Origin: Allodiplogaster sudhausi
Taxonomy: Eukaryota > Nematoda > Chromadorea > Rhabditida > Diplogasteridae
Reading direction: 5' to 3'
DNA length: 64,000 nucleotides
Assembly: GCA_945643635.1 (NCBI GenBank)
Contig: CALZFC010000203.1
Coordinates: 1 to 64,000 of the forward strand
This document shows positions 211 through 64,000 of this stretch, one piece after another (position 1 is the stretch's first letter; each line of letters begins with the position of its first letter). The notes under the pieces were generated by a model, which was not told where the DNA came from, ran no database searches, and was given only the letters and a program-made list of their open reading frames with translations. Position numbers and translations under genes: made by a program.

Positions 211-3200
211 CGTTCGGCGAACATCGGCTATCATCAGGTTTCATCGGCTTTCATCGGCTAACAACGGGTTTCATCGGTTCGTCATCGGTTAAACATCCAG
301 TTTCATCTGCGAGCATCGGGGATTCATCGGTTTCATCGGCTAAACAACGGGTTTCATCGGATTTCATCGGGTTTCATCGTCGAATATCGGTATCACCGGG
401 TGTCATCGTCGCATGTCGGGTATCATCGAGTTTCATCGGCGAACATCGGGTATCATCGGGTTCATCGGCCTAACATCGGGTTTCATCAGTTGTCATCGGT
501 AAACATCCAGTTTCATCGGCGAACATCGGGTATCATCGGGTTTCATCGGCTAACTTCGGGTTTCATCGGGTTTCATCGGCTAACATCGGGTATCATCGGA
601 TTACATCGGTTTTCATCTTCGAACATCGGGTTTCATCGGGTTTCATCGTTCATAATCGGGTATCATCGGGTTTCATCGGCTAACAACGGGTTTCATCGGG
701 TTATATGGTTGAACATCAGGTTTTATCGGGGAACATCGGGTTTCATCGGGTTTCATCGGGATTCATCGGGTTTCATCAGCTAACATCGGGTGCCATCGGA
801 TTACATCGGTTTTCATGGGCGAACATCGGGTTTCATCGGGTTTCATCGTCGAATATCGGGCATCGTCGGGTTCATAGTCTAATATCGGGTATCATCGGGT
901 TTCATCAGGTTTCATCGGCTAACAACGGGTTTCATCGTGTTTTATGGGGGAACATCGGGTTTTATCGGGTTTGCTACCCGATGTTAGCCGATGAAACGAT
1001 GAAACCCGATGTTAGCCGATGATACCGATATTCGACGATGAAACCCGACGATACCCGATAATGGACGATGAAACCCGATGAAACCCGATAATGGACGATG
1101 AAACCCGATGAAACCGTGTTATAAGATGAAAACCGATGTTCATCGGCTAACTTCGGGTTTCATCGGCTTTCATCGGCTAACATCGGGTATCATCGGATTT
1201 GACCAGTTTTTTACTAGAATTTAACCCGATTTTTTTTCCAGAAATTGACCAGCTTTTGACAAGAATTTGACCAAAATTTGACCAGAATTTGACCAAAATT
1301 TGACCAGAATTTGACCAGTTTTTTACTAGAATTTAACCAGAATTTTTCCAGAAATTGACCAGCTTTTGACAAGAATTTGACCAAAAGTTGACCAGAATTT
1401 GACCAAAAATGACCAGAATTTGACCAGTTTTGACCAGAATTTGACAAGATTTTGACCAGACCGATAATGGACGATGAAACCCGATGAAACCCGATAATGG
1501 ACGATGAAACCCGATGAAACCCGATGTTGGAAGATGAAACCCGATGTTCATCGGCTAACTTCGGGTTTCATCGGGTTTCATCGGCTAACATCGGGTATCA
1601 TCGGATTTGACCAGTTTTTTACTAGAATTTAACCCGATTTTTTTCCAGAAATTGACCAGCTTTTGACAAGAATTTGACCAAAATTTTACCAGAATTTGAC
1701 CAAAAAATTTGACCAGAATTTTACCAGTTTTTTACTAGAATTTAACCAGATTTTTTCCAGAAATTGACCAGATTTTGACAAGAATTTGACCAAAAGTTGA
1801 CCAGAATTTGACCAGTTTTTTACCAGAATTTTACCAGATTTTTTCCAGAATTTGACCAGCTTTTGACCAGAATTTGAACAGAATTTGACCAAAATTTGAC
1901 CAGAATTTTGACCAAAAGTTGACCAGAATTTTACCAGAATTTGACCAAAATTTGACCAGAATTTTACAAAAATTTCACCAGAATTTGACCAGTTTTTTTA
2001 CCAGAATTAACCAGATTTTCTTCAGAATTTTTCAGAACCCGATGTTAGCCGATGAAACCCGATGAAACCGATGTTAGCCGATGAAACCCGATGATACCGA
2101 TATTCGACGATGAAACCCGACGATACCCGATAATGGACGATGAAACCCGATGTTCGAAGATGAAAACGATGTAATCCGATGATACCCGATGTTCGCCGAT
2201 GAAACAAGATGATACTCGACATGCGACGATGAAACCCGATGATACCAGATATTCGACGATGAAACCCGACGAAAACCGATGTAATCCGATGCTACCCGAT
2301 GTTAGCCGATGAAACCCGATGTTAGCCGATGAAACCCCGATGAAACCCGATGTTAGCCGATGAAAAAAGATGATACCGATATTCGACGATGAAACCTGAT
2401 GATACCCGACATGCGACGATGATGAAACCCGATGAAACCCGAGGCTCGAAGATGAAAACCGATGTAATCCGATGATACCCGATGTTAGCCGATGAAACCC
2501 GATGAAACCCGATGTGCGCCGATGAAACCCGGTGATACCCGATGTTCGCCGATGAAACCCGATGATAACCGACATGCGACGATGAAAACCCGATGATACC
2601 CGATATTCGACGATGAAACCCGATGAAAACCGATGTAATCCGATGCTACCCGATGTTAGCCGATGAAACCCGATGTTAGCCGATGAAACCCGATGAAACC
2701 CGATGTTAGCCGATGAAAAAGATGATACCCGATATTCGACGATGAAACCTGATGATACCCGACATGCGACGATGAAACCCGATGAAACCCGATGCTCGAA
2801 GATGAAAACCGATGTAATCCGATGATACCCGATGTTAGCCGATGAAACCCGATGAAACCCGATGTGCGCCGATGAAACCCGGTGATACCCGATGTTCGCC
2901 GATGAAACCCGATGATAACCGACATGCGACGATGAAACCCGATGATACCCGATATTCGACGATGAAACCCGATGAAAACCGATGTAATCCGATGCTACCC
3001 GATGTTAGCCGATGAAACCCGATGTACACCGATGAAACCCGATGTGTGCCGATGAAACCCGATGATACCCGATGTTCGCCGATGAAACCCGACGATACCC
3101 GATAATGGACGATGAAACCGATGTTCGAAGATGAAAACCAATGTAATCCGATGATACCCGATGTTCGCCGATAAAACCCGATGATACCCGATATTCGACG

Positions 3201-3636
3201 ATGAAATCCGACGATACCCGATTATGGACGATGAAACCCGATGAAACCCGATGTTCGAAGATGAAAACCGATGTAATCCGATGATACCCGATGTTAGCCG
3301 ATGAAACCCGATGAAACCCGATGTGCGCCGATGAAACCCGATGAAACCCGATGTAGCCGATGTAACCCGATGAAACCCGATGTTAGCCGATGAAACCCGA
3401 TGGTACCCGCTGTTCGCCGATGAAACCCGATGATACCCGACATGCGACGATGAAACCCGATGATACCGATATTCGACGATGAAACCCTATGAAAACCGAT
3501 GTAATCCGATGCTACCCGATGTTAGCCGTTGAAACCCGATGAAACCCGATGTTCGAAGATGAAAACCGATGTAATCCGATGATAACCGATGTTAGCCGAT
3601 GAAACCCGATGAAACCTGATGTTAGCCGATGTAACC
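211..3636. repeat. HOR copy 1, complete canonical unit
   Basis: Layout: A- arm 211-973, A+ connector 974-1140, short A- 1141-1197, B1 1198-1460, A+ cassette 1461-1548, short A- 1549-1605, B2 1606-2037, A+ arm 2038-3636. The A- to A+ switch reads tttgctacccg and lacks the usual 10-bp unit taatccgatg, a state shared only with copy 18. A private base change (atcgag near 427) is also shared with copy 18. The A+ arm has both nested 349-type subrepeats (markers gaggctcg at 2441 and gatgctcg at 2791). Confidence 0.93.
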
Positions 3637-6598
3637 CGTTCGGCGAACATCGGCTATCATCAGGTTTCATCGGCTTTCATCGGCTAACAACGGGTTTCAT
3701 CGGTTGTCATCGGTAAACATCCAGTTTCATCTGCGAGCATCGGGATTCATCGGGTTTCATCGGCTAACAACGGGTTTCATCGGATTTCATCGGGTTTCAT
3801 CGTCGAATATCGGGTATCACCGGGTGTCATCGTCGCATGTCGGGTATCATCGGGTTCATCGGCGAACATCGGGTATCATCGGGTTTCATCGGCTAACATC
3901 GGGTTTCATCAGTTGTCATCGGTAAACATCCAGTTTCATCGGCGAACATCGGGTATCATCGGGTTTCATCGGCTAACTTCGGGTTTCATCGGGTTTCATC
4001 GGCTAACATCGGGTATCATCGGATTACATCGGTTTTCATCTTCGAACATCGGGTTTCATCGGGTTTCATCGTTCATAATCGGGTATCATCGGGTTTCATC
4101 GGCTAACAACGGGTTTCATCGGGTTATATGGTTGAACATCAGGTTTTATCGTAGAACATCGGGTTTCATCGGGTTTCATCGGGATTCATCGGGTTTCATC
4201 AGCTAACATCGGGTGCCATCGGATTACATCGGTTTTCATGGGCGAACCTCGGGTTTCATCGGGTTTCATCGTCGAATATCGGGCATCGTCGGGTTTCATA
4301 GTCTAATATCGGGTATCATCGGGTTTCATCAGGTTTCATCGGCTAACAACGGGTTTCATCGTGTTTTATGGGGGAACATCGGGTTTATCGGGTTTGTAAT
4401 CCGATGCTACCCGATGTTAGCCGATGAAGCCCGATGAAACCCGATGTTAGCCGATGATACCGATATTCGACGATGAAACCCGACGATACCCGATAATGGA
4501 CGATGAAACCCGATGAAACCCGATAATGGACGATGAAACCCGATGAAACCCGATGTTATAAGATGAAAACCCGATGTTCATCGGCTAACTTCGGGTTTCA
4601 TCGGCTTTCATCGGCTAACATCGGGTATCATCGGATTTGACCAGTTTTTACTAGAATTTAACCCGATTTTTTTCCAGAAATTGACCAGCTTTTGACAAGA
4701 ATTTGACCAAAATTTTACCAGAATTTGACCAAAATTTGACCAGAATTTTACCAGTTTTTTACTAGAATTTAACCAGATTTTTTTCCAGAAATTGACCAGA
4801 TTTTGACAAGAATTTGACCAAAAGTTGACCAGAATTTGACCAGTTTTTTACCAGAATTTTACAGATTTTTTCCAGAATTTGACCAGCTTTTGACCAGAAT
4901 TGAAACAGAATTTGACCAAAATTTGACCAGAATTTGACCAAAAGTTGACCAGAATTTTACCAGAATTTGACCAAAATTTGACCAGAATTTTACAAAAATT
5001 TCACCAGAATTTGACCAGTTTTTTTACCAGAATTTAACCAGATTTTCTTCAGAATTTTTCAGAACCCGATGTTAGCCGATGAAACCCGATGAAACCCGAT
5101 GTTAGCCGATGAAACCCGATGATACCCGATATTCGACGATGAAACCCGACGATACCCGATAATGGACGATGAAACCCGATGTTCGAAGATGAAAACCGAT
5201 GTAATCCGATGATACCGATGTTCGCCGATGAAACAAGATGATACTCGACATGCGACGATGAACCCGATGATACCAGATATTCGACGATGAAACCCGACGA
5301 AAACCGATGTAATCCGATGCTACCCGATGTTAGCCGATGAAACCCGATGTTAGCCGATGAAACCCGATGAAAACCGATGTTAGCCGATGAAAAAGATGAT
5401 ACCCGATATTCGACGATGAAACCTGATGATACCCGACATGCGACGATGAAACCCGATGAAACCCGAGGCTCGAAGATGAAAACCGATGTAATCCGATGAT
5501 ACCCGATGTTAGCCGATGAAACCGATGAAACCCGATGTGCGCCGATGAAACCCGGTGATACCCGATGTTCGCCGATGAAACCCGATGATAACCGACATGC
5601 GACGATGAAACCCGATGATACCCGATATTCGACGATGAAACCCGATGAAAACCGATGTAATCCGATGCTACCCGATGTTAGCCGATGAAACCCGATGTTA
5701 GCCGATGAAACCCGATGAAACCCGATGTTAGCCGATGAAAAAGATGATACCCGATATTCGACGATGAAACCTGATGATACCCGACATGCGACGATGAAAC
5801 CCGATGAAACCCGATGCTCGAAGATGAAAACCGATGTAATCCGATGATACCGATGTTAGCCGATGAAACCCGATGAAACCCGATGTGCGCCGATGAAACC
5901 CGGTGATACCCGATGTTCGCCGATGAAACCCGATGATAACCGACATGCGACGATGAAAACCCGATGATACCCGATATTCGACGATGAAACCCGATGAAAA
6001 CCGATGTAATCCGATGCTACCCGATGTTAGCCGATGAAACCCGATGTACACCGATGAAAACCGATGTGTGCCGATGAAACCCGATGATACCCGATGTTCG
6101 CCGATGAAACCCGACGATACCCGATAATGGACGATGAAACCCGATGTTCGAAGATGAAAACCAATGTAATCCGATGATACCCGATGTTCGCCGATATAAA
6201 ACCGATGATACCCGATATTCGACGATGAAATCCGACGATACCCGATTATGGACGATGAAACCCGATGAAACCCGATGTTCGAAGATGAAAACCGATGTAA
6301 TCCGATGATACCCGATGTTAGCCGATGAAACCCGATGAAACCCGATGTGCGCCGATGAAACCGATGAAACCCGATGTTAGCCGATGTAACCCGATGAAAC
6401 CCGATGTTAGCCGATGAAACCCGATGGTACCCGCTGTTCGCCGATGAAACCCGATGATACCGACCGACCATGATACCCACGATGAAACCCGATGATACCC
6501 GATATCGACGATGAAACCCTATGAAAACCGATGTAATCCGATGATACCCGATGTTAGCCGATGAAACCCGATGAAAACCGATGTTAGCCGATGTAACC
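3637..6598. repeat. HOR copy 2, lacking B1 and the A+ cassette
   Basis: Layout: A- arm 3637-4396, A+ connector 4397-4578, short A- 4579-4635, a single B block 4636-5064, A+ arm 5065-6598. The short A- piece is of the type that normally precedes B1 (ggctttcatcgg), but the B block that follows has the sequence of B2 (early aattttaccag monomers). B1, the A+ cassette and the second short A- were therefore removed, most simply by recombination between the two identical A-/B boundaries. Confidence 0.92.
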
Positions 6599-9500
6599 CG
6601 TTCGGCGAACATCGGCTATCATCAGGTTTCATCGGCTTTCATCGGCTAACAACGGGTTTCATCGGTTGTCATCGGTAAACATCCAGTTTCATCTGCGAGC
6701 ATCGGGATTCATCGGGTTTCATCGGCTAACAACGGGTTTCATCGGATTTCATCGGGTTTCATCGTCGAATATCGGGTATCACCGGGTGTCATCGTCGCAT
6801 GTCGGGTATCATCGGGTTTCATCGGCGAACATCGGGTATCATCGGGTTTCATCGGCTAACATCGGGTTTCATCAGTTGTCATCGGTAAACATCCAGTTTC
6901 ATCGGCGAACATCGGGTATCATCGGGTTTCATCGGCTAACTTCGGGTTTCATCGGGTTTCATCGGCTAACATCGGGTATCATCGGATTACATCGGTTTTC
7001 ATCTTCGAACATCGGGTTTCATCGGGTTTCATCGTTCATAATCGGGTATCATCGGGTTTCATCGGCTAACAACGGGTTTCATCGGGTTATATGGTTGAAC
7101 ATCAGGTTTTATCGTAGAACATCGGGTTTCATCGGGTTTCATCGGGATTCATCGGGTTTCATCAGCTAACATCGGGTGCCATCGGATTACATCGGTTTTC
7201 ATGGCGCGAACCTCGGGTTTCATCGGGTTTCATCGTCGAATATCGGGCATCGTCGGGTTTCATAGTCTAATATCGGGTATCATCGGGTTTCATCAGGTTT
7301 CATCGGCTAACAACGGGTTTCATCGTGTTTTATGGGGGAACATCGGGTTTTATCGGGTTTGTAATCCGATGCTACCCGATGTTAGCCGATGAAGCCCGAT
7401 GAAACCCGATGTTAGCCGATGATACCCGATATTCGACGATGAAACCCGACGATACCCGATAATGGACGATGAAACCCGATGAAACCCGATAATGGACGAT
7501 GAAACCCGATGAAACCCGATGTTATAAGATGAAAACCCGATGTTCATCGGCTAACTTCGGGTTTCATCGGCTTTCATCGGCTAACATCGGGTATCATCGG
7601 ATTTGACCAGTTTTTTACTAGAATTTAACCCGATTTTTTTTCCAGAAATTGACCAGCTTTTGACAAGAATTTGACCAAAATTTGACCAGAATTTGACCAA
7701 AATTTGACCAGATTTGACCAGTTTTTTACTAGAATTTAACCAGAATTTTTTCCAGAAATTGACCAGCTTTTGACAAGAATTTGACCAAAAGTTGACCAGA
7801 ATTTGACCAAAAATTGACCAGAATTTGACCAGTTTTTGACCAGAATTTGACAAGATTTTGACCAGACCCGATAATGGACGATGAAACCCGATGAAACCCG
7901 ATAATGGACGATGAAAACGATGAAACCCGATGTTATAAGATGAAAACCCGATGTTCATCGGCTAACTTCGGGTTTCATCGGCTTTCATCGGCTAACATCG
8001 GGTATCATCGGATTTGACCAGTTTTTTACTAGAATTTAACCCGATTTTTTTCCAGAAATTGACCAGCTTTTGACAAGAATTTGACCAAAATTTTACCAGA
8101 ATTGACCAAAATTTGACCAGAATTTTACCAGTTTTTTACTAGAATTAACCAGATTTTTTTCCAGAAATGACCAGATTTTGACAAGAATTTGACCAAAAGT
8201 TGACCAGAATTTGACCAGTTTTTACCAGAATTTTACCAGATTTTTCCAGAATTTGACCAGCTTTTGACCAGAATTTGAACAGAATTTGACCAAAATTTGA
8301 CCAGAATTTGACCAAAAGTTGACCAGAATTTTACCAGAATTTGACCAAAATTTGACCAGAATTTTACAAAAATTTCACCAGAATTTGACCAGTTTTTTTA
8401 CCAGAATTTAACCAGATTTTCTTCAGAATTTTTCAGAACCCGATGTTAGCCGATGAAAACCGATGAAACCCGATGTTAGCCGATGAAACCCGATGATACC
8501 CGATATTCGACGATGAAACCCGACGATACCCGATAATGGACGATGAAACCCGATGTTCGAAGATGAAAACCGATGTAATCCGATGATACCGATGTTCGCC
8601 GATGAAACAAGATGATACTCGACATGCGACGATGAAACCCGATGATACCAGATATTCGACGATGAAACCCGACGAAAACCGATGTAATCCGATGCTACCC
8701 GATGTTAGCCGATGAAACCCGATGTTAGCCGATGAAACCCGATGAAACCCGATGTTAGCCGATGAAAAAGATGATACCCGATATTCGACGATGAAACCTG
8801 ATGATACCCGACATGCGACGATGAAACCCGATGAAACCCGAGGCTCGAAGATGAAAACCGATGTAATCCGATGATACCCGATGTTAGCCGATGAAACCCG
8901 ATGAAACCCGATGTGCGCCGATGAAAACCGGGTGATACCGATGTTCGCCGATGAAACCCGATGATAACCGACATGCGACGATGAAACCCGATGATACCCG
9001 ATATTCGACGATGAAACCCGATGAAAACCGATGTAATCCGATGCTACCCGATGTTAGCCGATGAAACCGATGTTAGCCGATGAAACCCGATGAAACCCGA
9101 TGTTAGCCGATGAAAAAGATGATACCCGATATTCGACGATGAAAACCTGATGATACCCGACATGCGACGATGAAACCCGATGAAACCCGATGCTCGAAGA
9201 TGAAAACCGATGTAATCCGATGATACCCGATGTTAGCCGATGAAACCCGATGTGCGCCGATGAAACCCGGTGATACCCGATGTTCGCCGATGAAACCCGA
9301 TGATAACCGACATGCGACGATGAAACCGATGATACCCGATATTCGACGATGAAACCCGATGAAAACCGATGTAATCCGATGCTACCGATGTTAGCCGATG
9401 AAACCCGATGTACACCGATGAAACCCGATGTGTGCCGATGAAACCCGATGATACCCGATGTTCGCCGATGAAACCCGACGATACCCGATAATGGACGATG

Positions 9501-10026
9501 AAACCCGATGTTCGAAGATGAAAAACCAATGTAATCCGATGATACCCGATGTTCGCCGATAAAACCCGATGATACCCGATATTCGACGATGAAATCCGAC
9601 GATACCCGATTATGGACGATGAAACCCGATGAAACCCGATGTTCGAAGATGAAAACCGATGTAATCCGATGATACCCGATGTTAGCCGATGAAACCCGAT
9701 GAAACCCGATGTGCGCCGATGAAACCCGATGAAACCCGATGTTAGCCGATGTAACCCGATGAAACCCGATGTTAGCCGATGAAACCCGATGGTACCCGCT
9801 GTTCGCCGATGAAACCCGATGATACCCGACATGCGACGATGAAACCCGATGATACCCGATATTCGACGATGAAACCCTATGAAAACCGATGTAATCCGAT
9901 GCTACCCGATGTTAGCCGTTGAAACCCGATGAAACCCGATGTTCGAAGATGAAAACCGATGTAATCCGATGATACCCGATGTTAGCCGATGAAACCCGAT
10001 GAAACCCGATGTCAGCCGATGTAACC
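6599..10026. repeat. HOR copy 3, complete unit
   Basis: Layout: A- arm 6599-7361, A+ connector 7362-7544, short A- 7545-7601, B1 7602-7866, A+ cassette 7867-7955, short A- 7956-8012, B2 8013-8438, A+ arm 8439-10026. The cassette ends with gttataag and is followed by ggctttcatcgg. These are connector-type states rather than the usual gttggaag and gggtttcatcgg, so the cassette looks converted from the connector. The A+ arm has both nested subrepeats. Confidence 0.92.
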
Positions 10027-13000
10027 CGTTCGGCGAACATCGGCTTTCATCGGCTAACAACGGGTTCATCGGTTGTCATCGGTAAACATCCAGTTTCATC
10101 TGCGAGCATCGGGATTCATCGGGTTTCATCGGCTAACAACGGGTTTCATCGGATTTCATCGGGTTTCATCGTCGAATATCGGGTATCACCGGGTGTCATC
10201 GTCGCATGTCGGGTATCATCGGGTTTCATCGGCGAACATCGGGTATCATCGGGTTTCATCGGCTAACATCGGGTTCATCAGTTGTCATCGGTAAACATCC
10301 AGTTTCATCGGCGAACATCGGGTATCATCGGGTTTCATCGGCTAACTTCGGGTTTCATCGGGTTTCATCGGCTAACATCGGGTATCATCGGATTACATCG
10401 GTTTTCATCTTCGAACATCGGGTTTCATCGGGTTTCATCGTTCATAATCGGGTATCATCGGGTTTCATCGGCTAACAACGGGTTTCATCGGGTTATATGG
10501 TTGAACATCAGGTTTTATCGTGAACATCGGGTTTCATCGGGTTTCATCGGGATTCATCGGGTTTCATCAGCTAACATCGGGTGCCATCGGATTACATCGG
10601 TTTTCATGGGCGAACCTCGGGTTTCATCGGGTTTCATCGTCGAATATCGGGCATCGTCGGGTTTCATAGTCTAATATCGGGTATCATCGGGTTTCATCAG
10701 GTTTCATCGGCTAACAACGGGTTTCATCGTGTTTTATGGGGAACATCGGGTTTTATCGGGTTTGTAATCCGATGCTACCCGATGTTAGCCGATGAAGCCC
10801 GATGAAACCCGATGTTAGCCGATGATACCCGATATTCGACGATGAAACCCGACGATACCCGATAATGGACGATGAAACCCGATGAAACCCGATAATGGAC
10901 GATGAAACCCGATGAAACCCGATGTTATAAGATGAAAACCCGATGTTCATCGGCTAACTTCGGGTTTCATCGGCTTTCATCGGCTAACATCGGGTATCAT
11001 CGGATTTGACCAGTTTTTTACTAGAATTTAACCCGATTTTTTTTCCAGAAATTGACCAGCTTTTGACAAGAATTTGACCAAAATTTGACCAGAATTTGAC
11101 CAAAATTTGACCAGAATTTGACCAGTTTTTTACTAGAATTTAACCAGAATTTTTTCCAGAAATTGACCAGCTTTTGACAAGAATTTGACCAAAAGTTGAC
11201 CAGAATTTGACCAAAAATTGACCAGAATTTGACCAGTTTTTGACCAGAATTTGACAAGATTTTGACCAGACCCGATAATGGACGATGAAACCCGATGAAA
11301 CCCGATAATGGACGATGAAACCCGATGAAACCCGATGTTGGAAGATGAAAACCCGATGTTCATCGGCTAACTTCGGGTTTCATCGGGTTTCATCGGCTAA
11401 CATCGGGTATCATCGGATTTGACCAGTTTTTTACTAGAATTTAACCTGATTTTTTTCCAGAAATTGACCAGCTTTTGACAAGAATTTGACCAAAATTTTA
11501 CCAGAATTTGACCAAATTTGACCAGAATTTTACCAGTTTTTTACTAGAATTTAACCTGATTTTTTTCCAGAAATTGACCAGATTTTGACAAGAATTTGAC
11601 AAAAGTTGACCAGAATTTGACCAGTTTTTTACCAGAATTTAACCAGATTTTTTCCAGAATTTGACCAGCTTTTGACCAGAATTTGAACAGAATTTGACCA
11701 AAATTTGACCAGAATTTGACCAAAATTTGACCAGAATTTTACCAGAATTTGACCAAAATTTGACCAGAATTTTACAAAAATTTCACCAGAATTTGACCAG
11801 TTTTTTACCAGAATTTAACCAGATTTTCTTCAGAATTTTTCAGAACCCGATGTTAGCCGATGAAACCCATGAAACCCGATGTTAGCCGATGAAACCCGAT
11901 GATACCCGATATTCGACGATGAAACCCGACGATACCCGATAATGGACGATGAAACCCGATGTTCGAAGATGAAAACCGATGTAATCCGATGATACCCGAT
12001 GTTCGCCGATGAAACAAGATGATACCCGACATGCGACGATGAAACCCGATGATACCAGATATTCGACGATGAAACCCGACGAAAACCGATGTAATCCGAT
12101 GCTACCCGATGTTAGCCGATGAAACCCGATGTTAGCCGATGAAACCCGATGAAACCCGATGTTAGCCGATGAAAAAGATGATACCCGATATTCGACGATG
12201 AAACCTGATGATACCCGACATGCGACGATGAAACCCGATGAAACCCGATGCTCGAAGATGAAAACCGATGTAATCCGATGATACCCGATGTTAGCCGATG
12301 AAACCCGATGAAACCCGATGTGCGCCGATGAAACCCGGTGATACCCGATGTTCGCCGATGAAACCCGATGATAACCGACATGCGACGATGAAACCCGATG
12401 ATATCCGATATTCGACGATGAAACCCGATGAAAACCGATGTAATCCGATGCTACCCGATGTTAGCCGATGAAACCCGATGTACACCGATGAAACCCGATG
12501 TGTGCCGATGAAACCCGATGATACCCGATGTTCGCCGATGAAACCCGACGATACCCGATAATGGACGATGAAACCCGATGTTCGAAGATGAAAACCAATG
12601 TAATCCGATGATACCCGATGTTCGCCGATAAAACCCGATGATACCCGATATTCGACGATGAAATCCGACGATACCCGATTATGGACGATGAAACCCGATG
12701 AAACCCGATGTTCGAAGATGAAAACCGATGTAATCCGATGATACCCGATGTTAGCCGATGAAACCCGATGAAACCCGATGTGCGCCGATGAAACCCGATG
12801 AAACCCGATGTTAGCCGATGTAACCGATGAAACCCGATGTTAGCCGATGAAACCCGATGGTACCCGCTGTTCGCCGATGAAACCCGATGATACCCGACAT
12901 GCGACGATGAAACCCGATGATACCCGATATTCGACGATGAAACCCTATGAAAACCGATGTAATCCGATGCTACCCGATGTTAGCCGTTGAAACCCGATGA

Positions 13001-52291: not shown

Positions 52292-53340
52292 TTTGACCAG
52301 TTTTTGACCAAAATTGACCAGAATTTGACCAGTTTTTTGACCAGAATTTGACAAGATTTTGACCAGAATTTTACCAAAATTTCACCAGAATTTGACCAGT
52401 TTTTACCAGAATTTGACCAAAATGTGACCAGAATTTGACCACAATTTGACCAGAATTTGACAAGATTTTGACCACAATTTTACAAAAATTTCACCAAATT
52501 TGGCCAGTTTTTTTTTACCAGAATTTAACCAGATTTTTTTTCAGAATTTGACCAGCTTTTGACCACAATTTGACCAAAATTTGACCACAATTTGACCAAA
52601 ATTTGACCAGAATTTGACAAAATTTTGATCAGAATGTAACCAAATTTGACAAGAATTTGACCAGTTTTTGACCAGAATTTGACAAGATTTTGACCAAATT
52701 TTACAAAAATTTCACCAGATTTTGACCAGTTTTTTTAATAGAATGTGACCTGATTTTTTCTAGAATTTGACCAGCTTTTGACCAGAATTTGACCAAAATT
52801 TGACCAGAATTTGACCAAAATTTTACCAGAATTTGACCAGTTTTGACCAGAATTTGACCAAAGTTTGACCAGAATTTTACCAGTTTTTGACCAGAATTTG
52901 ACAAGATTTTGACCAGAATTTAAAAAATGTGACCAAAATTTGACCAGAATTAGACAAAAAATTTACCAGAATTTGACCAGTTTTTGACCAGAATTTAATC
53001 AGATGTTTTCCAGAATTTGACCAAAATTTTACCAGAATTTGACAAGATTTTGAACAGAATTTGACAAGATTTTGACCAGAATTTTACCAAAATCAGACCA
53101 GAATTTGACAAGATTTTGACAAGATTGACCAGAATTTTACAAAAGTTTCACCAGAATTTGACCAGCTTTTAACCAGAATTGACCAAAATTTGACCAGAAT
53201 TTGTCCAAAATTTTAAAAGAATTTGACAAGCTTTTGACCAGAATTTGACCAAAATTTGACCAGAATTTGACCAAAATATTACCAGAATTTGACCAGTTTT
53301 GACCAGAATTTGACCAAAGTTTGACCAGAATTTGACCAGA
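52292..53340 (+). repeat. Heterogeneous B+ array
   Basis: About 1 kb of 11-bp B monomers with many private variants (aatgtgacc, gaccacaattt, aatcagacc, ttggccag, aatagaatgtgacc). It lacks the ordered landmark variants that make B1 and B2 recognisable in every other HOR. This is the least homogenised B sequence in the window. Confidence 0.85.
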
Positions 53341-53770
53341 ATTTGATCAAAATCTTGTAAAATTAATTTCTGGTCAAAATCTTCTCAAATTCTGGTCAAA
53401 TTTTGGTCAAATTCTGGTCAAATTTTGGTCCAATTCTGGTCAAATTTTGGTCAAATTCTGGTCAAAAGCTGGTCAAATTTTGTGAAATTTTTGTAAAATT
53501 CTGGTCAAAATCTTGTCAAAGTCTGGTCAAAAACTGGTCAAATTCTGTTCAAATTTTGGTAAAATTCTGGTCAAAGTCTTGTCAAATTCTGGTCAAAAAC
53601 TGGTAAAATTCTGGTCAAACTTTGGTCAAATTCTGGTCAAAACTGGTCAAATTCGGTAAAATTTTGTTCAAATTCTGGTCAAATTTTGGTCAAATTCTGG
53701 TCAAAAGCTGGTCAAATTCTATAAAAAATCTGGTCAAATTCTGGTAAAAAACTGGTCAATTCTGGTAAAA
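53341..53770 (-). repeat. Inverted B array (B-), second and longer copy
   Basis: It begins with the same switch sequence as at 51421. It continues past the duplicated 279 bp with further ctggtcaaatt monomers and the variants attctataaaaaatctgg and ggtaaaaaactgg, ending in a t run at 53772-53780. Read on the opposite strand, its last ~80 bp resemble the B+ sequence that starts after the island. Confidence 0.88.
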
Positions 53771-53850
53771 ATTTTTTTTTCAAAGGTTTAACATTTCGAA
53801 ATCAAGGGCTCTTGATGACTACTATATTTGCTTAATTTTAAGCAAAATTT
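53771..53850. other. Unique non-repeat island between inverted B arrays
   Basis: About 80 bp with no A or B monomer, the only such stretch I found. It holds a t run (53772-53780) and ttcgaa. It also has a hairpin at 53801-53816 with arms atcaag/cttgat around ggct, and a second at 53827-53846 with arms tttgcttaa/ttaagcaaa around tt. No reading frame of note and no family resemblance that I recognise. It lies between B- on the left and B+ on the right. Confidence 0.85.
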
Positions 53851-55608
53851 GAATTTCACCAGATTTGACCAGTTTTTTACTAACAGATTTTTTCCAGAAA
53901 TTGACCAGCTTTTGACCAGAATTTTGACAAGATTTTGACCAGAATTTGACAAGATTTTGACCAGAATTTTACCAAAATTTTACCAGAATTTGACCAGTTT
54001 TTGGCAAGAATTTAACCAGATTTTTTTCCAGAATTTGACCAAAAATTTGACCAGAATTTTACCAGTTTTTGACCAGAATTTGACAAGATTTTGACCAGAA
54101 TTTTACAAAAATTTCACCAGAATTTGACCAGTTTTTTTACCAGAATTTAACGATTTTTTCCAGAATTTAACCAGCTTTTGACCAGAATTTGAACAGAATT
54201 TGACCAAAATTTGACCAGAATTTGACCAAAATTTGACCAGAATTTTACCAGAATTTGACCAAATTTGACCAGAATTTTACAAAAATTTCACCAGATTTGA
54301 CCAGTTTTTTTACCAGAATTTAACCAGATTTTTTTCAGAATTTTTCAGAACCCGATGTTAGCCGATGAAACCCGATGAAACCCGATGTTAGCCGATGAAA
54401 CCCGATGATACCCGATATCGACGATGAAACCCGACGATACCCGATAATGGACGATGAAACCCGATGTTCGAAGATGAAAACCGATGTAATCCGATGATAC
54501 CCGATGTTCGCCGATGAAACCCGATGATACCCGACATGCGACGATGAAACCCGATGATACCAGATATTCGACGATGAAACCCGATGAAAACCGATGTAAT
54601 CCGATGCTACCCGATGTTAGCCGATGAAACCCGATGTTAGCCGATGAAACCCGATGAAACCCGATGTTAGCCGATGAAAAACGATGATACCCGATATTCG
54701 ACGATGAAACCTGATGATACCCGACATGCGACGATGAAACCCGATGAAACCCGATGCTCGAAGATGAAAACCGATGTAATCCGATGATACCCGATGTTAG
54801 CCGATGAAACCCGATGGAACCCGATGTGCGCCGATGAAACCCGGTGATACCCGATGTTCGCCGATGAAACCCGATGATACCCGACATGCGACGATGAAAC
54901 CCGATGATACCCGATATTCGACGATGAAACCCGATGAAACCGATGTAATCCGATGCTACCCGATGTTAGCCGATGAAACCCGATGTACACCGATGAAACC
55001 CGATGTGTGCCGATGAAACCCGATGATACCCGATTTCGCCGATGAAACCCGACGATACCCGATAATGGACGATGAACCCGATGTTCGAAGATGAAAACCA
55101 ATGTAATCCGATGATACCCGATGTTCGCCGATAAAACCCGATGATACCCGATATTCGACGATGAAATCCGACGATACCCGATTATGGACGATGAAACCCG
55201 ATGAAACCCGATGTTCGAAGATGAAAACCGATGTAATCCGATGATACCCGATGTTAGCCGATGAAACCCGATGAAACCCGATGTGCGCCGATGAAACCCG
55301 ATGAACCCCGATGTTAGCCGATGTAACCCGATGAAACCCGATGTTAGCCGATGAAACCCGATGGTACCCGCTGTTCGAGGATGAAACCCGATGATACCCG
55401 ACATGCGACGATGAAACCCGATGATACCCGATATTCGACGATGAAACCCTATGAAAACCGATGTAATCCGATGCAACCCGATGTTAGCCGTTGAAACCCG
55501 ATGAAACCCGATGAAACCCGATGTTCGAAGATGAAAACCGATGTAATCCGATGATACCCGATGTTAGCCGATGAAACCCGATGAAACCCGATGTTAGCCG
55601 ATGTAACC

Positions 55609-58600
55609 CGTTCGGCGAACATCGGCTATCATCAGGTTTCATCGGCTTTCATCGGCTAACAACGGGTTTCATCGGTGTCATCGGTAAACATCCAGTTTCA
55701 TCTGCGAGCATCGGGATTCATCGGGTTTCATCGGCTAACAACGGGTTTCATCGGATTTCATCGGGTTTCATCGTCGAATATCGGGTATCACCGGGTGTCA
55801 TCGTCGCATGTCGGGTATCATCGAGTTTCATCGGCGAACATCGGGTATCATCGGTTTCATCGGCTAACATCGGGTTTCATCAGTTGTCATCGGTAAACAT
55901 CCAGTTTCATCGGCGAACATCGGGTATCATCGGGTTTCATCGGCTAACTTCGGGTTTCATCGGGTTTCATCGGCTAACATCGGGTATCATCGGATTACAT
56001 CGGTTTTCATCTTCGAACATCGGGTTTCATCGTTCATAATCGGGTATCATCGGGTTTCATCGGCTAACAACGGGTTTCATCGGGTTATATGGTTGAACAT
56101 CAGGTTTTTATCGGGGAACATCGGGTTTCATCGGGTTTCATCGGGATTCATCGGTTTCATCAGCTAACATCGGGTGCCATCGGATTACATCGGTTTTCAT
56201 GGGCGAACATCGGGTTTCATCGGGTTTCATCGTCGAATATCGGGCATCGTCGGGTTTCATAGTCTAATATCGGGTATCATCGGGTTTCATCAGGTTTCAT
56301 CGGCTAACAACGGGTTTCATCGTGTTTTATGGGGGAACATCGGGTTTTATCGGTTTGCTACCCGATGTTAGCCGATGAAGCCCGATGAAACCCGGTTAGC
56401 CGATGATACCCGATATTCGCCGATGAAACCCGACGATACCCGATAATGGACGATGAAACCCGATGAAACCCGATATGGACGATGAAACCCGATGAAACCC
56501 GATGTTATAAGATGAAAACCCGATGTTCATCGGCTAACTTCGGGTTTCATCGGCTTTGATCGGCTAACATCGGGTATCATCGGATTTGACCAGTTTTTTA
56601 CTAGAATTTAACCCGATTTTTTTTCCAGAAATTGACCAGCTTTTGACAAGATTTGACCAAAATTTTGACCAGAATTTGACCAAAATTTGACCAGAATTTG
56701 ACCAGTTTTTTACTAGAATTTAACCAGAATTTTTTCCAGAAATTGACCAGCTTTTGACAAGAATTTGACCAAAAGTTGACCAGAATTTGACCAAAAATTG
56801 ACCAGAATTTGACCAGTTTTTGACCAGAATTTGACAAGATTTTGACCAGACCCGATAATGGACGATGAAAGCCGATGAAACCCGATAATGGACGATGAAA
56901 CCCCGATGAAACCCCGATGTTGGAAGATGAAACCCGATGTTCATCGGCTAACTTCGGGTTTCATCGGGTTTCATCGGCTAACATCGGGTATCATCGGATT
57001 TTGACCAGTTTTTTACTAGAATTTAACACCGATTTTTTTCCAGAAATTGACCAGCTTTTGACAAGAATTTGACCAAAATTTTACCAGAATTTGACCAAAT
57101 TTGACCAGAATTTTACCAGTTTTTTACTAGAATTTAACCAGATTTTTTTCCAGAAATTGACCAGATTTTGACAAGAATTAGACCAAAAGTTGACCAGAAT
57201 TTGACCAGTTTTTTACCAGAATTTAACCAGATTTTTTCCAGAATTTGACCAACTTTTGACCAGAATTTGAACAGAATTTGACCAAAATTTTGACCAGAAT
57301 TTGACCAAAATTTGACCAGAATTTTACCAGAATTTGACCAAATTTGACCAGAATTTTACAAAAATTTCACCAGAATTTGACCAGTTTTTTTACCAGAATT
57401 TAACCAGATTTTCTTCAGAATTTTTCAGACCCGATGTTAGCCGATGAACCCGATGAAACCCGATGTTAGCCGATGAAACCCGATGATACCCGATATTCGA
57501 GACGATGAAACCCGAACGATACCCGATAATGGACGATGAAACCCGATGTTCCGAAGATGAAAACCGATGTAATCCGATGATACCCGATGTTCGCCGATGA
57601 AACAAGATGATACTCGACATGCGACGATGAACCCGATGATACCAGATATTCGACGATGAAACCCGACGAAAACCGATGTAATCCGATGCTACCCGATGTT
57701 AGCCGATGAAACCCTATGTTAGCCGATGAAACCCGATGAACCCGATGTTAGCCGATGAAAAAGATGATACCCGATATTCGAGATGAAACCTGATGATCCC
57801 GACATGCGACGATGAAACCCGATGAAACCCGAGGCTCGAAGATGAAAACCGATGTAATCCGATGATACCCGATGTTAGCCGATGAAACCCGATGAAACCC
57901 GATGTGCGCCGATGAAACCCGGTGATACCCGATTTCGCCGATGAAACCCGATGATAACCGACATGCGACGATGAACCCGATGATACCCGATATTCGACGA
58001 TGAAACCCGATGAAAACCGATGTAATCCGATGCTACCCGATGTTAGCCGATGAAACCCGATGTTAGCCGATGAAACCCGATGAAACCCGATGTTAGCCGA
58101 TGAAAAGATGATACCCGATATTCGAACGATGAAACCTGATGATACCCGACATGCGACGATGAACCCGATGAACCCGATGCTCGAAGATGAAAACCGATGT
58201 AATCCGATGATACCCGATGTTAGCCGATGAAACCCGATGAAACCCGATGTGCGCCGATGAAACCCGGTGATACCCGATGTTCGCCGATGAACCCGATGAT
58301 AACCGACATGCGACGATGAAACCCGATGATACCCGATATTCGACGATGAAACCCGATGAAACCGATGTAATCCGATGCTACCCGATGTTAGCCGATGAAA
58401 CCGATGTACACCGATGAACACCGATGAACCCGATGTGTGCCGATGAACCCCGATGATACCCGATGTTCGCCGATGAACCCGACGATACCCATAATGGACG
58501 ATGAAACCCGATGTTCGAAGATGAAAACCAATGTAATCCGATGATACCCGATGTTCGCCGATAAAACCCGATGATACCCGATATTCGACGATGAAAATCC

Positions 58601-59035
58601 GACGATACCCGATTATGGACGATGAAACCCGATGAAACCCGATGTTTGAAGATGTAAACCGATGTAATCCGATGATACCCGATGTTAGCCGATGAAACCC
58701 GATGAAACCCGATGTGCGCCGATGAACCCGATAAACCCGATGTTAGCCGATGTAACCCGATGAAACCCGATGTTATCCGATGAAAACCCGATGGTACCCG
58801 CTGTTCGCCGATGAAACCCGATGATACCGACATGCGACGATGAAACCCGATGATACCCGATATTCGACGATGAAACCCTATGAAAACCGATGTAATCCGA
58901 TGCTACCCGATGTTAGCCGTTGAAACCCGATGAAACCCGATGAACCCGATGTTCGAAGATGAAAACCGATGTAATCCGATGATACCCGATGTTAGCGATG
59001 AAACCCGATGAAACCCGATGTTAGCCGATGTAACC
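55609..59035. repeat. HOR copy 18, canonical, close to copy 1
   Basis: Layout: A- arm 55609-56357, connector 56358-56527, short A- 56528-56584, B1 56585-56850, cassette 56851-56941, short A- 56942-56998, B2 56999-57429, A+ arm 57430-59035. It shares the missing 10-bp unit at the A- to A+ switch (tttgctacccg) and the tatcatcgag variant near 55816 with copy 1. Single-base indels in a and c runs are frequent after about 56.3 kb. Confidence 0.91.
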
Positions 59036-62000
59036 CGTTCGGGGCGACATCGGCTATCATCAGGTTTCATCGGCTTTCATCGGCTAACAACGGGTTTCAT
59101 CGGTTGTCATCGGTAAACATCCAGTTTCATCTGCGAGCATCGGGATTCATCGGGTTTCATCGGCTAACAACGGGTTTCATCGGATTTCATCGGGTTTCAT
59201 CGTCGAATATCGGGTATCATCGGGTGTCATCGTCGCATGTCGGTATCATCGGGTTTCATCGGCGAACATCGGGTATCATCGGGTTTCATCGGCTAACATC
59301 GGGTTTCATCAGTTTGTCATCGGTAAACATCCAGTTTCATCGGCGAACATCGGGTATCATCGGGTTTCATCGGCTAACTTCGGGTTTCATCGGTTTCATC
59401 GGCTAACATCGGGTATCATCGGATTACATCGGTTTTCATCTTCGAACATCGGGTTTCATCGGTTTCATCGTTCATAATCGGGTATCATCGGGTTTCATCG
59501 GCTAACAACGGGTTTCATCGGGTTATATGGTTGAACATCAGGTTTTTCGGGAACATCGGGTTTTAATCGGGTTTCATCGGGATTCATCGGGTTTCATCAG
59601 CTAACATCGGGTGCCATCGATTACATCGGTGTTTCATGGGCGAACATCGGGTTTCATCGGGTTTCATCGTCGAATATCGGGCATCGTCGGGTTTCATAGT
59701 CTAATATCGGGTATCATCGGGTTTCATCAGGTTTCATCGGCTAACACGGGGTTTCATCGTGTTTTATGGGGAAACATCGGGTTTTATCGGTTTGTAATCC
59801 GATGCTACCCGATGTTAGCCGATGAAGCCCGATGAAACCCGATGTTAGCCGATGATACCCGATATTCGACGATGAAACCCGACGATACCCGATAATGGAC
59901 GATGAAACCCGATGAAACCCGATAATGACGATGAAACCGATGAAACCCGATGTTATAAGATGAAAACCCGATGTTCATCGGCTAACTTCGGGTTTCATCG
60001 GCTTTCATCGGCTAACATCGGGTATCATCGGATTTGACCAGTTTTTTACTAGAATTTAACCCGATTTTTTTTCCAGAAATTGACCAGCTTTTGACAAGAA
60101 TTTGACCAAAATTTGACCAGAATTTGACCAAAATTTGACCAGAATTTGACCAGTTTTTTACTAGAATTTAACCAGAATTTTTTTCCAGAAATTGACCAGC
60201 TTTTGACAAGAATTTGACCAAAAGTTGACCAGAATTTGACCAAAAATTGACCAGAATTTGACCAGTTTTTGACCAGAATTTGACAAGATTTTGACCAGAC
60301 CCGATAATGACGATGAAACCCGATGAAACCCGATAATGGACGATGAAACCCCGATGAAACCCGATGTTGGAAGATGAAAACCCGATGTTCATCGGCTAAC
60401 TTCGGGTGTCATCGGGTTTCATCGGCTAACATCGGTATCATCGGATTTGACCAGTTTTTTACTAGAATTTAACCCGATTTTTTTTCCAGAAATTGACCAG
60501 CTTTTGACAAGAATTGACCAAAATTTTACCAGAATTTGACCAAAATTTGACCAGAATTTTACAGTTTTTTTACTAGAATTTTACCAGATTTTTTTCCAGA
60601 AATTGACCAGATTTTGACAAGAATTTGACCAAAAGTTGACCAGAATTTGACCAGTTTTTTACCAGAATTTAACCAGATTTTTTCCAGAATTTGACCAGCT
60701 TTTGACCAGAATTTGAACAGAATTTGACCAAAATTTGACCAGAATTTGACCAAAATTTGACCAGAATTTTACCAGAATTTGACCAAAATTTGGACCAGAA
60801 TTTTACAAAAATTTCACCAGAATTTGACCAGTTTTTTTACCAGAATTTAACCAGATTTTCTTCAGAATTTTTCAGAACCCGATGTTAGCCGATGAACACC
60901 GATGAAACCCGATGTTAGCCGAGAAACCCGATGATACCCCGATATTCGACGATGAAACCCGACGATACCCCGATAATGGACGATGAAACCCCGATGTTCG
61001 AAGATGAAACCGATGTAATCCGATGATACCCGATGTTCGCCGATGAAACAAGATGATACCCGACATGCGACGATGAAACCCGATGATACCAGATATTCGA
61101 CGATGAAACCCGAACGAAAACCGATGTAATCCGATGCTACCCGATGTTAGCCGATGAAACCCGATGTTAGCCGATGAAACCCGATGAAACCCGATGTTAG
61201 CCGATGAAAAAGATGATACCCGATATTCGACGATGAAACCTGATGATACCCGACATGCGACGATGAAACCCGATGAACCCGAGGCTCGAAGATGAAAACC
61301 GATGTAATCCGATGATACCCGATGTTAGCCGATGAACCCGATGAAACCGATGTGCGCCGATGAACCCGGTGATACCCATGTTCGCCGATGAAACCCGATG
61401 ATAACCGCACATGCGACGATGAAACCCGATGATACCCGATATTCGACGATGAAACCCGATGAAACCGATGTAATCCGATGCTACCCGATGTTAGCCGATG
61501 AAACCCGATGTTAGCCGATGAAACCCGATGAAACCCGATGTTAGCCGATGAAAAAGATGATACCCGATATTCGACGATGAAACCTGATGATACCCGACAT
61601 GCGACGATGAAACCCGATGAAACCCGATGCTCGAAGATGAAAACCGATGTAATCCGATGATACCCGATTTAGCCGATGAAACCCGATGAAACCCGATGTG
61701 CGCCGATGAAACCCCGTGATACCCGATGTTCGCCGATGAAACCCGATGATAACCGACATGCGACGATGAAACCCGATGATACCCGATATTCGACGATGAA
61801 ACCCGATGAAAACCGATGTAATCCGATGCTACCCGATGTTAGCCGATGAAACCCGATGTACACACCGATGAAACCCGATGTGTGCCGATGAAACCCGTGA
61901 TACCCGATGTTCGCCGATGAAACCCGACGATACCCGATAATGGACGATGAAACCCGATGTTCGAAGATGAAAACCAATGTAATCCGATGATACCCGATGT

Positions 62001-62483
62001 TCGCCGATAAAACCCGATGATACCCGATATTCGACGATGAAATCCGACAATACCCGATTATGGACGATGAAACCCGATGAAACCCGATGTTCGAAGATGA
62101 AAACCGATGTAATCCGATGATACCCGATGTTAGCCGATGAAACCCGATGAAACCCGATGTGCGCCGATGAAACCCGATGAAACCCGATGTTAGCCGATGT
62201 AACCCGATGAAACCCGATGTTAGCCGATGAAACCCGATGGTACCCGCTGTTCGCCGATGAAACCCGATGATACCCGACATGCGACGATGAAACCCGATGA
62301 TACCCGATATTCGGACGATGAACCCTATGAAAAACCGATGTAATCCGATGCTACCCATGTTTAGCCGTTGAAACCCGATGAAACCCGATGAACCCGATGT
62401 TCGAAGATGAAAACCGATGTAATCCGATGATACCCGATGTTAGCCGATGAAACCGATGAAACCCGATGTTAGCCGATGTAACC
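59036..62483. repeat. HOR copy 19, canonical, indel-rich
   Basis: Layout: A- arm 59036-59794, connector 59795-59975, short A- 59976-60032, B1 60033-60299, cassette 60300-60389, short A- 60390-60445, B2 60446-60877, A+ arm 60878-62483. The junction reads cgttcggggcgac, a local change unlike the other copies. Both nested subrepeats are present (gaggctcg near 61280, gatgctcg near 61626). Confidence 0.91.
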
Positions 62484-64000
62484 CGTTCGGCGAACATCGG
62501 CTATCATCAGGTTTCATCGCTTTCATCGGCTAACAACGGGTTTCATCGGTTGTCATCGGTAAACATCCAGTTTCATCTGCGAGCATCGGGATTCATCGGG
62601 TTTCATCGGCTAACAACGGGTTTCATCGGATTTCATCGGGTTTCATCGTCGAATATCGGGTATCACCGGGTGTCATCGTCGCATGTCGGGTATCATCGGG
62701 TTTCATCGGCGAACATCGGGTATCATCGGGTTTCATCGGCTAACATCGGGTTTCATCAGTTGTCATCGGTAAACATCCAGTTCATCGGCGAACATCGGGT
62801 ATCATCGGATTACATCGGTTTTCATCTTCGAACATCGGGTTTCATCGGGTTTCATCGTTCATAATCGGGTATCATCGGGTTTCATCGGCTAACATCGGGT
62901 TTCATGGTATCATCGGGTTTCATCGGCTAACATCGGGTTTCATCAGTTGTCATCGGTAAACATCCAGTTTCATCGGCGAACATCGGGTATCATCGGGTTT
63001 CATCGGCTAACTTCGGGTTTCATCGGGTTTCATCGGCTAACATCGGGTATCATCGGATTACATCGGTTTTCATCTTCGAACATCGCGTTTCATCGGGTTT
63101 CATCGTTCATAATCGGTATCATCGGGTTTCATCGGCTAACACAACGGGTTTTCATCGGGTTATATGGTTGAACATCAGGTTTTATCGGGAACATCGGGTT
63201 TTCATCGGGTTTCATCGGGATTCATCGGGTTTCATCAGCTAACATCGGGTGCCATCGGATTACATCGGTTTTCATGGGCGAACATCGGGTTTCATCGGGT
63301 TTCATCGTCGAATATCGGGCATCGTCGGGTTTCATAGTCTAATATCGGGTATCATCGGGTTTCATCAGGTTTCATCGGCTAACAACGGGTTTCATCGTGT
63401 TTTATATGGGGAACATCGGGTTTTATCGGGTTTGTAATCCGATGCTACCCGATGTTAGCCGATGAAGCCCGATGAAACCCGATGTTAGCCGTGATACCCG
63501 ATATTCGACGATGAAACCCGACGATACCCGATAATGGACGATGAAACCCGATGAAACCCGATAATGGACGATGGAAACCCGATGAAACCCGATGTTATAA
63601 GATGAACCCGATGTTCATCGGCTAACTTCGGGTTTCATCGGCTTTCATCGGCTAACATCGGTATCATCGGATTTGACCAGTTTTTTACTAGAAATTTAAC
63701 CCGATTTTTTTTCCAGAAATTGACCAGCTTTTGACAAGAATTTGACCAAAAATTTGACCAGAATTTGACCAAAATTTTGACCAGAATTTGACCAGTTTTT
63801 TACTAGAATTTAACCAGAATTTTTTCCAGAAATTGACCAGCTTTGACAAGAATTTGACCAAAAGTTGACCAGAATTTGACCAAAAATTGACCAGAATTTG
63901 ACCAGTTTTTGACCAGAAATTTGACAAGATTTTGACCAGACCGATAATGGACGATGAAACCCGATGAACCCGATAATGGCGATGAAACCCGATGAAACCC
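62484..64000. repeat. HOR copy 20, partial (runs off the window)
   Basis: Layout: A- arm 62484-63434, connector 63435-63615, short A- 63616-63671, B1 63672-63940, start of the A+ cassette 63941-64000. The A- arm carries the ttcatggtatc duplication breakpoint near 62903 that typifies copies 10 and 12-16, plus a deletion near 62800 that removes about six monomers from the first copy. Confidence 0.9.

What the first reader, a model, noticed from the sequence alone, without database searches (positions are those of the whole stretch)
211..64000. Compound higher-order satellite built from a 10-bp and an 11-bp minisatellite
Twenty inversion junctions delimit HOR units of 2.1-5.7 kb in which two unrelated-looking short repeats keep a conserved modular order, including inverted pieces. 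Most described satellite HORs are built from one monomer family in one orientation. I do not recognise this family. The order of individual monomer variants is preserved between copies, so homogenisation acts at the HOR level rather than on monomers.
Basis: partly seen in the sequence, partly recalled or inferred. Interest (0 to 1): 0.8.

Follow-up and report, generated by a model that had tools for sequence, protein, structure and literature searches.

The report
Compound nematode satellite with inverted arms
The window is one long block of repeated, apparently non-coding DNA, probably from a roundworm, in which two unrelated short repeats are locked into a unit of roughly 3 kilobases with built-in mirror-image arms that has been copied again and again; it is real and unusually elaborate, but it is a variant of a known kind of repeat.

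Summary
The window, and the 70,419-bp contig around it, is one satellite array of a 10-bp family (A, both orientations) and an unrelated 11-bp family (B). They sit in a fixed order: A+ arm, A- arm, A+184, A-56, B+267, A+90, A-56, B+320 to 430. Twenty of 21 units are on average 99.3% identical by substitutions; A decamers inside one unit average 77%. The exact 26-bp A+/A- junction occurs 42 times in the 352-Mb genome, all in four of 382 contigs; in one of these the array abuts an abundant 170-bp satellite. In the unit tested, A+ and A- arms are an old inverted duplication (76.5%, monomer order conserved), so units carry a large imperfect palindrome. The only mitochondrial COX1 found is nearest to rhabditid nematodes. 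Best reading: a young, locally amplified, non-coding satellite, built stepwise and homogenised at the level of whole units. Precedents exist: Meloidogyne higher-order repeats of unrelated satellites, Tribolium macro-dyads, human higher-order repeats of a 5-bp repeat. Novel are the sequences (within the searches made) and two minisatellites plus inverted arms inside the unit. Location, elimination and function were not tested.

The parts
1..64000 (.). A/B compound satellite array; the whole window, continuing to the contig end at 70,419
1..208 (+). end of the A+ arm of a unit cut by the contig start
209..3634 (+). higher-order unit 1 (3,426 bp)
3635..6596 (+). unit 2; lacks one A-56/B+267/A+90 module (gaps of 409 and 412 bp to its neighbours)
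6597..10024 (+). unit 3
10025..13102 (+). unit 4; A+ arm shorter (gaps of 339 and 349 bp to its neighbours)
13103..16436 (+). unit 5, used as the reference unit; first B block shorter by 111 bp
13103..13860 (-). long A- arm of unit 5
13861..14044 (+). A+184 module
14045..14100 (-). A-56 module
14101..14256 (+). first B+ module (156 bp here, usually about 267)
14257..14346 (+). A+90 module
14347..14402 (-). second A-56 module
14403..14834 (+). second B+ module (432 bp)
14835..16436 (+). long A+ arm of unit 5, with internal copies at an offset of about 340 bp
13096..13121 (+). one of 17 exact copies in the window of the 26-bp A+/A- inversion junction
16437..19748 (+). unit 6; against unit 5 one substitution, four small gaps and one 20-bp gap
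19749..23606 (+). unit 7; a middle module block is duplicated
23607..27480 (+). unit 8; same duplication as unit 7
27481..30835 (+). unit 9
30836..33804 (+). unit 10; first of seven neighbouring units with the short (about 320-bp) second B block
33805..35889 (+). unit 11; shortest unit (2,085 bp)
35890..38233 (+). unit 12
38234..40727 (+). unit 13
40728..43689 (+). unit 14
43690..46648 (+). unit 15
46649..49891 (+). unit 16
49892..55606 (.). unit 17; rearranged and B-rich, with two inverted B blocks
51423..51699 (-). inverted B block; 99.3% alike to the one at 53343
53343..53771 (-). inverted B block; its reverse complement is 94.1% alike to the B+ block before it
53772..53842 (.). 71-bp stretch assigned to neither A nor B
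55607..59033 (+). unit 18
59034..62481 (+). unit 19
62482..64000 (+). unit 20, continuing to 66,128 outside the window

Best explanation
This is a non-coding, young, locally amplified compound satellite of a probable rhabditid nematode, most likely in heterochromatin. Proposed history: A grew by stepwise amplification (10 bp, 30 bp, about 340 bp, 1.6-kb arm) and B likewise (11, 22, 111 bp). An A arm was duplicated in inverted orientation next to itself. A and B pieces were joined, and the composite unit of about 3.4 kb was then spread and kept uniform by unequal exchange or a similar process acting on whole units. It needs no sequence-specific function. Shown: the hierarchy, the unit-level homogeneity, the inverted arms (in the unit tested) and the confinement of the junction to four contigs. 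Inferred: order of events, exchange mechanism, heterochromatic location, absence of function.
For: Units 99.3% alike on average against 77% (A) and 85% (B) between monomers inside the reference unit. Several large length differences between neighbouring units correspond to modules or sub-blocks: 111 bp in B, 339 to 349 bp in the A+ arm, about 410 bp for a middle module, plus 10, 20 and 60 bp. In the A+ arm of unit 5 the best lag is 30, with an internal copy at offset 339 (86% by blastn); 340-bp subunits 1 and 2 are 91.8% and the B 111-bp block 94.9% alike by substitutions. A+ arm against reversed A- arm of unit 5: 76.5% over 847 columns, score 897 against a maximum of 624 in 30 decamer-order shuffles. 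Seven neighbouring units of 21 share the 320-bp B block (chance 1.3e-4 for one contiguous run, chosen after looking). 42 exact junctions, all in C196, C203, C379 and C380, five of the six spacings in C380 being 3,439 to 3,443 bp. Direct abutment to a 170-bp satellite in C196, of which 1,038 exact 43-mers exist. A short B array of about 273 bp, without A, lies in C131. No Rfam match at gathering score, no tRNA.
Against: Similarity does not clearly fall with distance between units (Mantel r 0.11, p 0.0975, 20 units), although immediate neighbours average highest (99.62%). Only 16 of 76 gaps of two or more bases in the 15 core neighbour pairs are exact multiples of 10 or 11, and several long gaps (for example 71, 89, 107, 186, 199, 247, 304, 461 bp) were not matched to a module. 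The edge piece at the 170-bp satellite is as homogeneous as the interior (median 99.34% against 99.28% for an interior control piece), so the edge decay expected of long-standing unequal exchange is not seen. A retained junction could also mean a structural role.
Confidence: 0.8

Rival explanations
1. The inverted arms matter: each unit can extrude a hairpin or cruciform of up to about 1.5 kb, and selection for that shape keeps the junction and arms (the macro-dyad idea proposed for Tribolium).
For: 801 nt around one junction fold at -394 kcal/mol as single-stranded DNA against a mean of -130 for 20 shuffles. 800 nt around the same junction fold at -396 against a mean of -278, best -301, when only the A- decamer order is shuffled (20 shuffles). 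The A+184/A-56 region folds at -61 against -25 for 200 shuffles. Exact junction 42 times.
Against: Any inverted duplication folds, and copying whole units keeps junctions alike with no selection. The arms tested have drifted to 76.5%, with gaps of 10 to 20 bp. One junction was folded; compensatory changes were not tested; no experimental evidence here.
Confidence: 0.1
2. The block is germline-limited DNA removed from somatic cells by programmed DNA elimination, which in several nematodes removes satellite-rich regions. (This could be true together with the best explanation.)
For: Best named COX1 matches include rhabditids: Litoditis 92%, Caenorhabditis briggsae 89%. Elimination of satellite-rich DNA is reported in ascaridids, Mesorhabditis and three early-diverging Caenorhabditis species (passages, PMC13370393).
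Against: No test of elimination was possible: no germline/soma coverage, no telomere-addition sites. The same passages say satellites are only a small part of eliminated DNA in Oscheius tipulae.
Confidence: 0.1
3. Assembly artefact: module order and inversions produced by collapsing or mis-joining reads.
For: The contig end is poorly polished: 213 one-base homopolymer gaps per 10,151 aligned bases in three tail pairs against 191 per 42,499 in the 15 core pairs. The contigs of the array whose lengths I saw are short: 70, 97 and 29 kb.
Against: Exact junctions in four contigs and 3.44-kb spacing in C380; the first 6 kb of C379 align over their length to C203 at 97.4%. Unit count and the exact structure of unit 17 remain unproven.
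Confidence: 0.03
4. The array codes for a repetitive protein.
For: 22 frames of 150 aa or more, the longest 318 aa and seen twice (32853-33809 and 45708-46664); some others also recur in several units.
Against: A 10-bp repeat without stops gives such frames mechanically, and near-identical units repeat them; frame lengths vary from unit to unit. One frame was searched: only 2 proteins at E below 0.001 (30% identity over 60% and 41% over 39% of the query). Selection on the frames was not tested.
Confidence: 0.01

Closest known systems
Complex higher-order repeats of Meloidogyne chitwoodi and M. fallax (PMC3694981; 12 of 20 passages read, part of the abstract among them)
   Same: Nematode; unit made of different satellites, some apparently unrelated (32% identity); long and short unit variants; units more alike than neighbouring monomers.
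   Different: Monomers there are much longer (a 170-bp ladder for the 1a variant), not 10/11 bp; no inverted arms in the passages seen (the word 'inverted' occurs 0 times); units 84-99% alike.
Macro-dyad satellites of Tribolium madens, T. freemani and T. castaneum (PMC13081366; 12 of 22 passages read, part of the abstract among them)
   Same: Two intermingled satellites (unrelated to each other in T. freemani and T. castaneum), inverted subarrays, conserved inversion sites, large potential hairpins.
   Different: In T. madens both satellites derive from a ~110-bp element and make up 38% of the genome; the array-level inversions lie between subarrays of several kb to tens of kb. Here the inversion lies inside each ~3.4-kb unit, the monomers are 10 and 11 bp, and about 150 kb was located.
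Human GAATG (5-bp) arrays with 3.36- and 3.6-kb higher-order repeats, and GsatII/hsatII arrays with inversions (PMC2588610; 12 of 13 passages read)
   Same: A very short repeat organised in units of about 3.4 kb; inversions in some arrays.
   Different: Nearly all arrays in the table seen are listed under one repeat family; inversions change the orientation of stretches of the array and are not reported as a fixed part of each unit in the passages seen.
Satellites in eliminated DNA of early-diverging Caenorhabditis (PMC13370393; 12 of 17 passages read)
   Same: Rhabditine nematode satellites in large blocks.
   Different: The examples given have 150- and 160-bp units; elimination was not tested here.

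Membership tests
Satellite DNA with higher-order repeats | Long head-to-tail array of multi-monomer units | tested here: met
   21 complete units in C203; array fills the contig
Satellite DNA with higher-order repeats | Units far more alike than monomers inside a unit | tested here: met
   about 99.3% (20 of 21 units) against 77% and 85% in one unit
Compound higher-order repeat of unrelated satellites (Meloidogyne type) | Component families without detectable similarity | tested here: met
   A against B no better than shuffles
Compound higher-order repeat of unrelated satellites (Meloidogyne type) | Sequence homology to the Meloidogyne families or their CENP-B-like box | not tested
   their sequences were not fetched
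Macro-dyad satellite (Tribolium type) | Adjacent inverted subarrays with conserved inversion site | tested here: met
   17 of 20 exact junctions in the window, 42 in the genome; arms homologous in the unit tested
Macro-dyad satellite (Tribolium type) | Inversion between subarrays of several kb to tens of kb | tested here: not met
   arms here are about 0.36 to 1.6 kb (A+) and 0.49 to 1.0 kb (A-) and recur inside each unit
(Peri)centromeric satellite | Location at primary constriction or CENP-A binding | not testable with these tools
   no karyotype or ChIP; chromosomes of related nematodes are holocentric (recalled)
Programmed-elimination DNA | Loss from somatic cells | not testable with these tools
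   no read data

The most novel reading that the evidence does not exclude
A nematode macro-dyad satellite: palindromic higher-order units, evolved independently of those of Tribolium, whose hairpin-forming inversion junction is kept because the shape has a role in chromatin, or marks a germline-limited block destined for elimination.
Probability: 0.12. Interest if true: 0.65.

Novelty: new variant of a known kind. Interest (0 to 1): 0.4.

Why it matters
The Tribolium authors state that macro-dyad satellite arrays were documented only in that genus (passage). An inversion built into the units of an unrelated two-minisatellite family, in a probable nematode, gives an independent case for asking whether such symmetry is a by-product of amplification or has a use. 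The nested hierarchy (10, 30, about 340, 1,600 and 3,440 bp; 11, 22, 111 bp) together with a short B array elsewhere in the genome is also a good record of how a compound satellite may be assembled from minisatellites.

Tried and rejected
Origin from the neighbouring 170-bp satellite or the 141- and 336-bp satellites: no alignment of A or B beat shuffles clearly (at best 10 of 100 shuffles reach the score). Edge decay: blastn gave at best 92.8% identity at the C196 edge, but counting substitutions only gives a median of 99.34%, so it was dropped. C131 B array as direct seed: its monomer order beats all 50 shuffles for 3 of 7 B blocks only, so it counts as family evidence, not proof of ancestry. 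Relatives elsewhere: no exact hit for A in viral or genome contigs, none for one A/B piece in plasmids by blastn; for B no viral hit and one exact 26-mer in a cyanobacterial MAG, a tract of a few copies that I take as chance. Literature by sequence string: A 14-mer in 2 grass-carp diet papers, seen in the search listing only (I take them to be primers), B 18-mer and 170-bp 20-mer in none. One term search combining satellite DNA, 10-bp, 11-bp, higher-order repeat and inverted gave 0 papers. Other term searches gave listings, from which I read passages of four papers. A species name and a nuclear or telomere marker were not reached: RF01960 and TTAGGC repeats did not complete. One search was a script that failed; one search did the job.
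Full report
Where the window lies. The window is bases 1 to 64,000 of contig C203 in a genome of 351,805,358 bases and 382 contigs. The contig is 70,419 bp long and is satellite from end to end. COX1 gave three matches, all in contig C228: two long ones whose only stops are TGA (8 and 7), and one short one with mixed stops. A second frame before COX1 on the same strand looks like ND4 to my eye (not searched). The best named COX1 matches are a Rhabditida cluster (89%), Litoditis (92%), Caenorhabditis briggsae (89%) and Angiostrongylus (88 to 89%) (120 of 7,997 shown). I therefore treat the source as a rhabditid nematode. A nuclear marker was not obtained, so a stray mitochondrial contig is not excluded.

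What is there. Two families fill the window: A, a decamer of the type CCGATGAAAC in both orientations, and B, an 11-mer of the type ATTTGACCAGA, nearly all in one orientation (706 of 15,314 B positions inverted). One shuffled window gives no assignment. A and B are unrelated by a shuffle test on pieces of unit 5. The unit, read from the main inversion, is A- arm (0.49 to 1.0 kb, mostly above 0.7), A+184, A-56, B+267, A+90, A-56, B+320 to 430, A+ arm (0.36 to 1.6 kb). Twenty such inversions start in the window and 22 in the contig. Variants exist: unit 2 lacks a middle module, units 7 and 8 have one twice, unit 17 is rearranged.

Homogeneity. Of 21 complete units, 20 differ pairwise by a mean of 0.67% substitutions, range 0.03 to 2.43%. 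The remaining one, 49,892 to 55,606, is rearranged and B-rich, holds two inverted B blocks 99.3% alike and a 71-bp stretch of neither family, and aligns at 91.9 to 97.1%. Inside unit 5 A decamers of the A+ arm average 77% and B monomers 85% identity. Several long gaps between neighbouring units fit modules or sub-blocks (111, 339 to 349, about 410 bp), others I did not assign; only 16 of 76 gaps of two or more bases in core pairs are exact multiples of 10 or 11. Most gaps are one-base homopolymer gaps, 191 of 283 gap events in the 15 core neighbour pairs and 213 of 293 in three tail pairs, which points to residual sequencing error, worse near the contig end. Similarity falls only weakly with distance (Mantel p 0.0975), but one subtype (320-bp B block) occupies seven neighbouring units (chosen after inspection).

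Hierarchy. In the A+ arm of unit 5 the best lag is 30 bp, with an internal copy at an offset of 339 bp (86% by blastn; 91.8% by substitutions for subunits 1 and 2). B shows 11- and 22-bp lags and a 111-bp block. The A+ arm and the reversed A- arm of unit 5 align over 847 columns at 76.5%, score 897 against at most 624 in 30 shuffles of decamer order. The A- arm is therefore best read as an old inverted duplicate, not a random inverted stretch of the same decamer; I tested one unit, which the near-identity of the others makes representative. Sequence around one junction folds far better than shuffles, also when only decamer order is shuffled (the script loads DNA parameters if present, and its value agrees). 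Folding potential is a consequence of the inversion and does not show that a hairpin forms.

Genome context. The exact 26-bp junction occurs 42 times: C196 10, C203 18, C379 7, C380 7, and nowhere else. An A 35-mer occurs 125 times; the 100 places listed lie in C196, C203 and C379, and 25 were not listed. A rarer A 25-mer occurs 14 times, only in the four contigs. A B 31-mer occurs 96 times, in the four contigs and three times in C131. In C131, a 773-kb contig, it belongs to a B array of about 273 bp; in the 1 kb read there, no A and no further B lie beside it. In C196 the array, in reverse orientation, meets a 170-bp satellite at about base 68,326 in mid-monomer. Exact 43-mers of that satellite run from 47,308 to 68,231 in C196, also fill the listed part of C205, and number 1,038 in the genome (the first 100 places listed). 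The far end of C196 (bases 1 to 800) looks non-repetitive by eye and matches neither satellite. Bases 801 to 60,000 and 70,001 to 96,476 of C196, 6,001 to 28,453 of C379 and all of C380 were not read; there I rely on the pattern hits. By these coordinates the array is at least about 150 kb. The edge against the 170-bp satellite is as homogeneous as the interior, so the amplification is young or the border is recent.

Mechanism. Shown: nested periodicities, unit-level homogeneity, some module-sized length variants, inverted homologous arms, confinement of the junction to four contigs. Inferred: that A and B began as separate minisatellites, that an A arm was duplicated in inverted orientation, that A and B pieces were joined, and that the composite unit was then amplified and homogenised by unequal exchange or a related process. 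No function is needed. Long open frames exist (22 of 150 aa or more), some recurring between units, but a stop-free decamer gives such frames mechanically; the one frame searched found 2 weak relatives.

Comparison. Higher-order repeats made of different, partly unrelated satellites are published for Meloidogyne (passages). Macro-dyad arrays with conserved inversion sites are published for Tribolium, whose authors write that they were documented only in that genus (passages). Units of 3.36 and 3.6 kb built from a 5-bp repeat, and inversions in other satellites, are published for human (passages). Elimination of satellite-rich DNA is published for several nematodes (passages). The present array combines such traits: two minisatellites, fixed order, inversion inside the unit. 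I found no report of these sequences in the string searches named, in viral or prokaryote contigs (one chance-like tract) or, for one A/B piece, in plasmids. No eukaryote repeat database or eukaryote genome collection was available, so 'new family' rests on those searches only.

Verdict. Novelty is moderate: a new variant of a known kind, with a structural or germline-elimination role as the open and testable extra.

Noticed in passing
L022:1-8325 (C196:60001-68325): A 170-bp satellite abuts the A/B array in mid-monomer; 1,038 exact 43-mers in the genome, a diverged relative in C2 (L003) and a weaker match to a 336-bp satellite at the start of C100 (L007).
   Followed up: partly
L028:404-676 (C131): Short array of the 11-bp B family without A in a 773-kb contig.
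   Followed up: partly
L002, L008, L009, L010, L012, L014: Among the 20 contig starts sampled, six carry further satellites besides those of L003, L007 and L013 (10-bp CCAGAGGAGC, 33-bp, 141/281-bp, 31-bp, about 384-bp, 51/9-bp), so several satellite blocks exist in this genome.
   Followed up: no
L005, L006, L016, L018, L019, L021: Many GA/CT dinucleotide tracts at contig starts that are not satellite arrays.
   Followed up: no
L011:7512-8963: Helitron-like N-terminal domain protein (Pfam PF14214, E 5.9e-41) in contig C202.
   Followed up: partly
L029 (C228): Mitochondrial-looking contig of 48,965 bp with two long COX1 matches about 20 kb apart, perhaps a circular genome assembled more than once around.
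   Followed up: no
window 53772-53842: 71-bp stretch of neither repeat inside the rearranged unit 17; origin unknown.
   Followed up: no
L027:1310-1355: A few-copy tract matching the B monomer in a Limnothrix MAG, taken as chance.
   Followed up: partly
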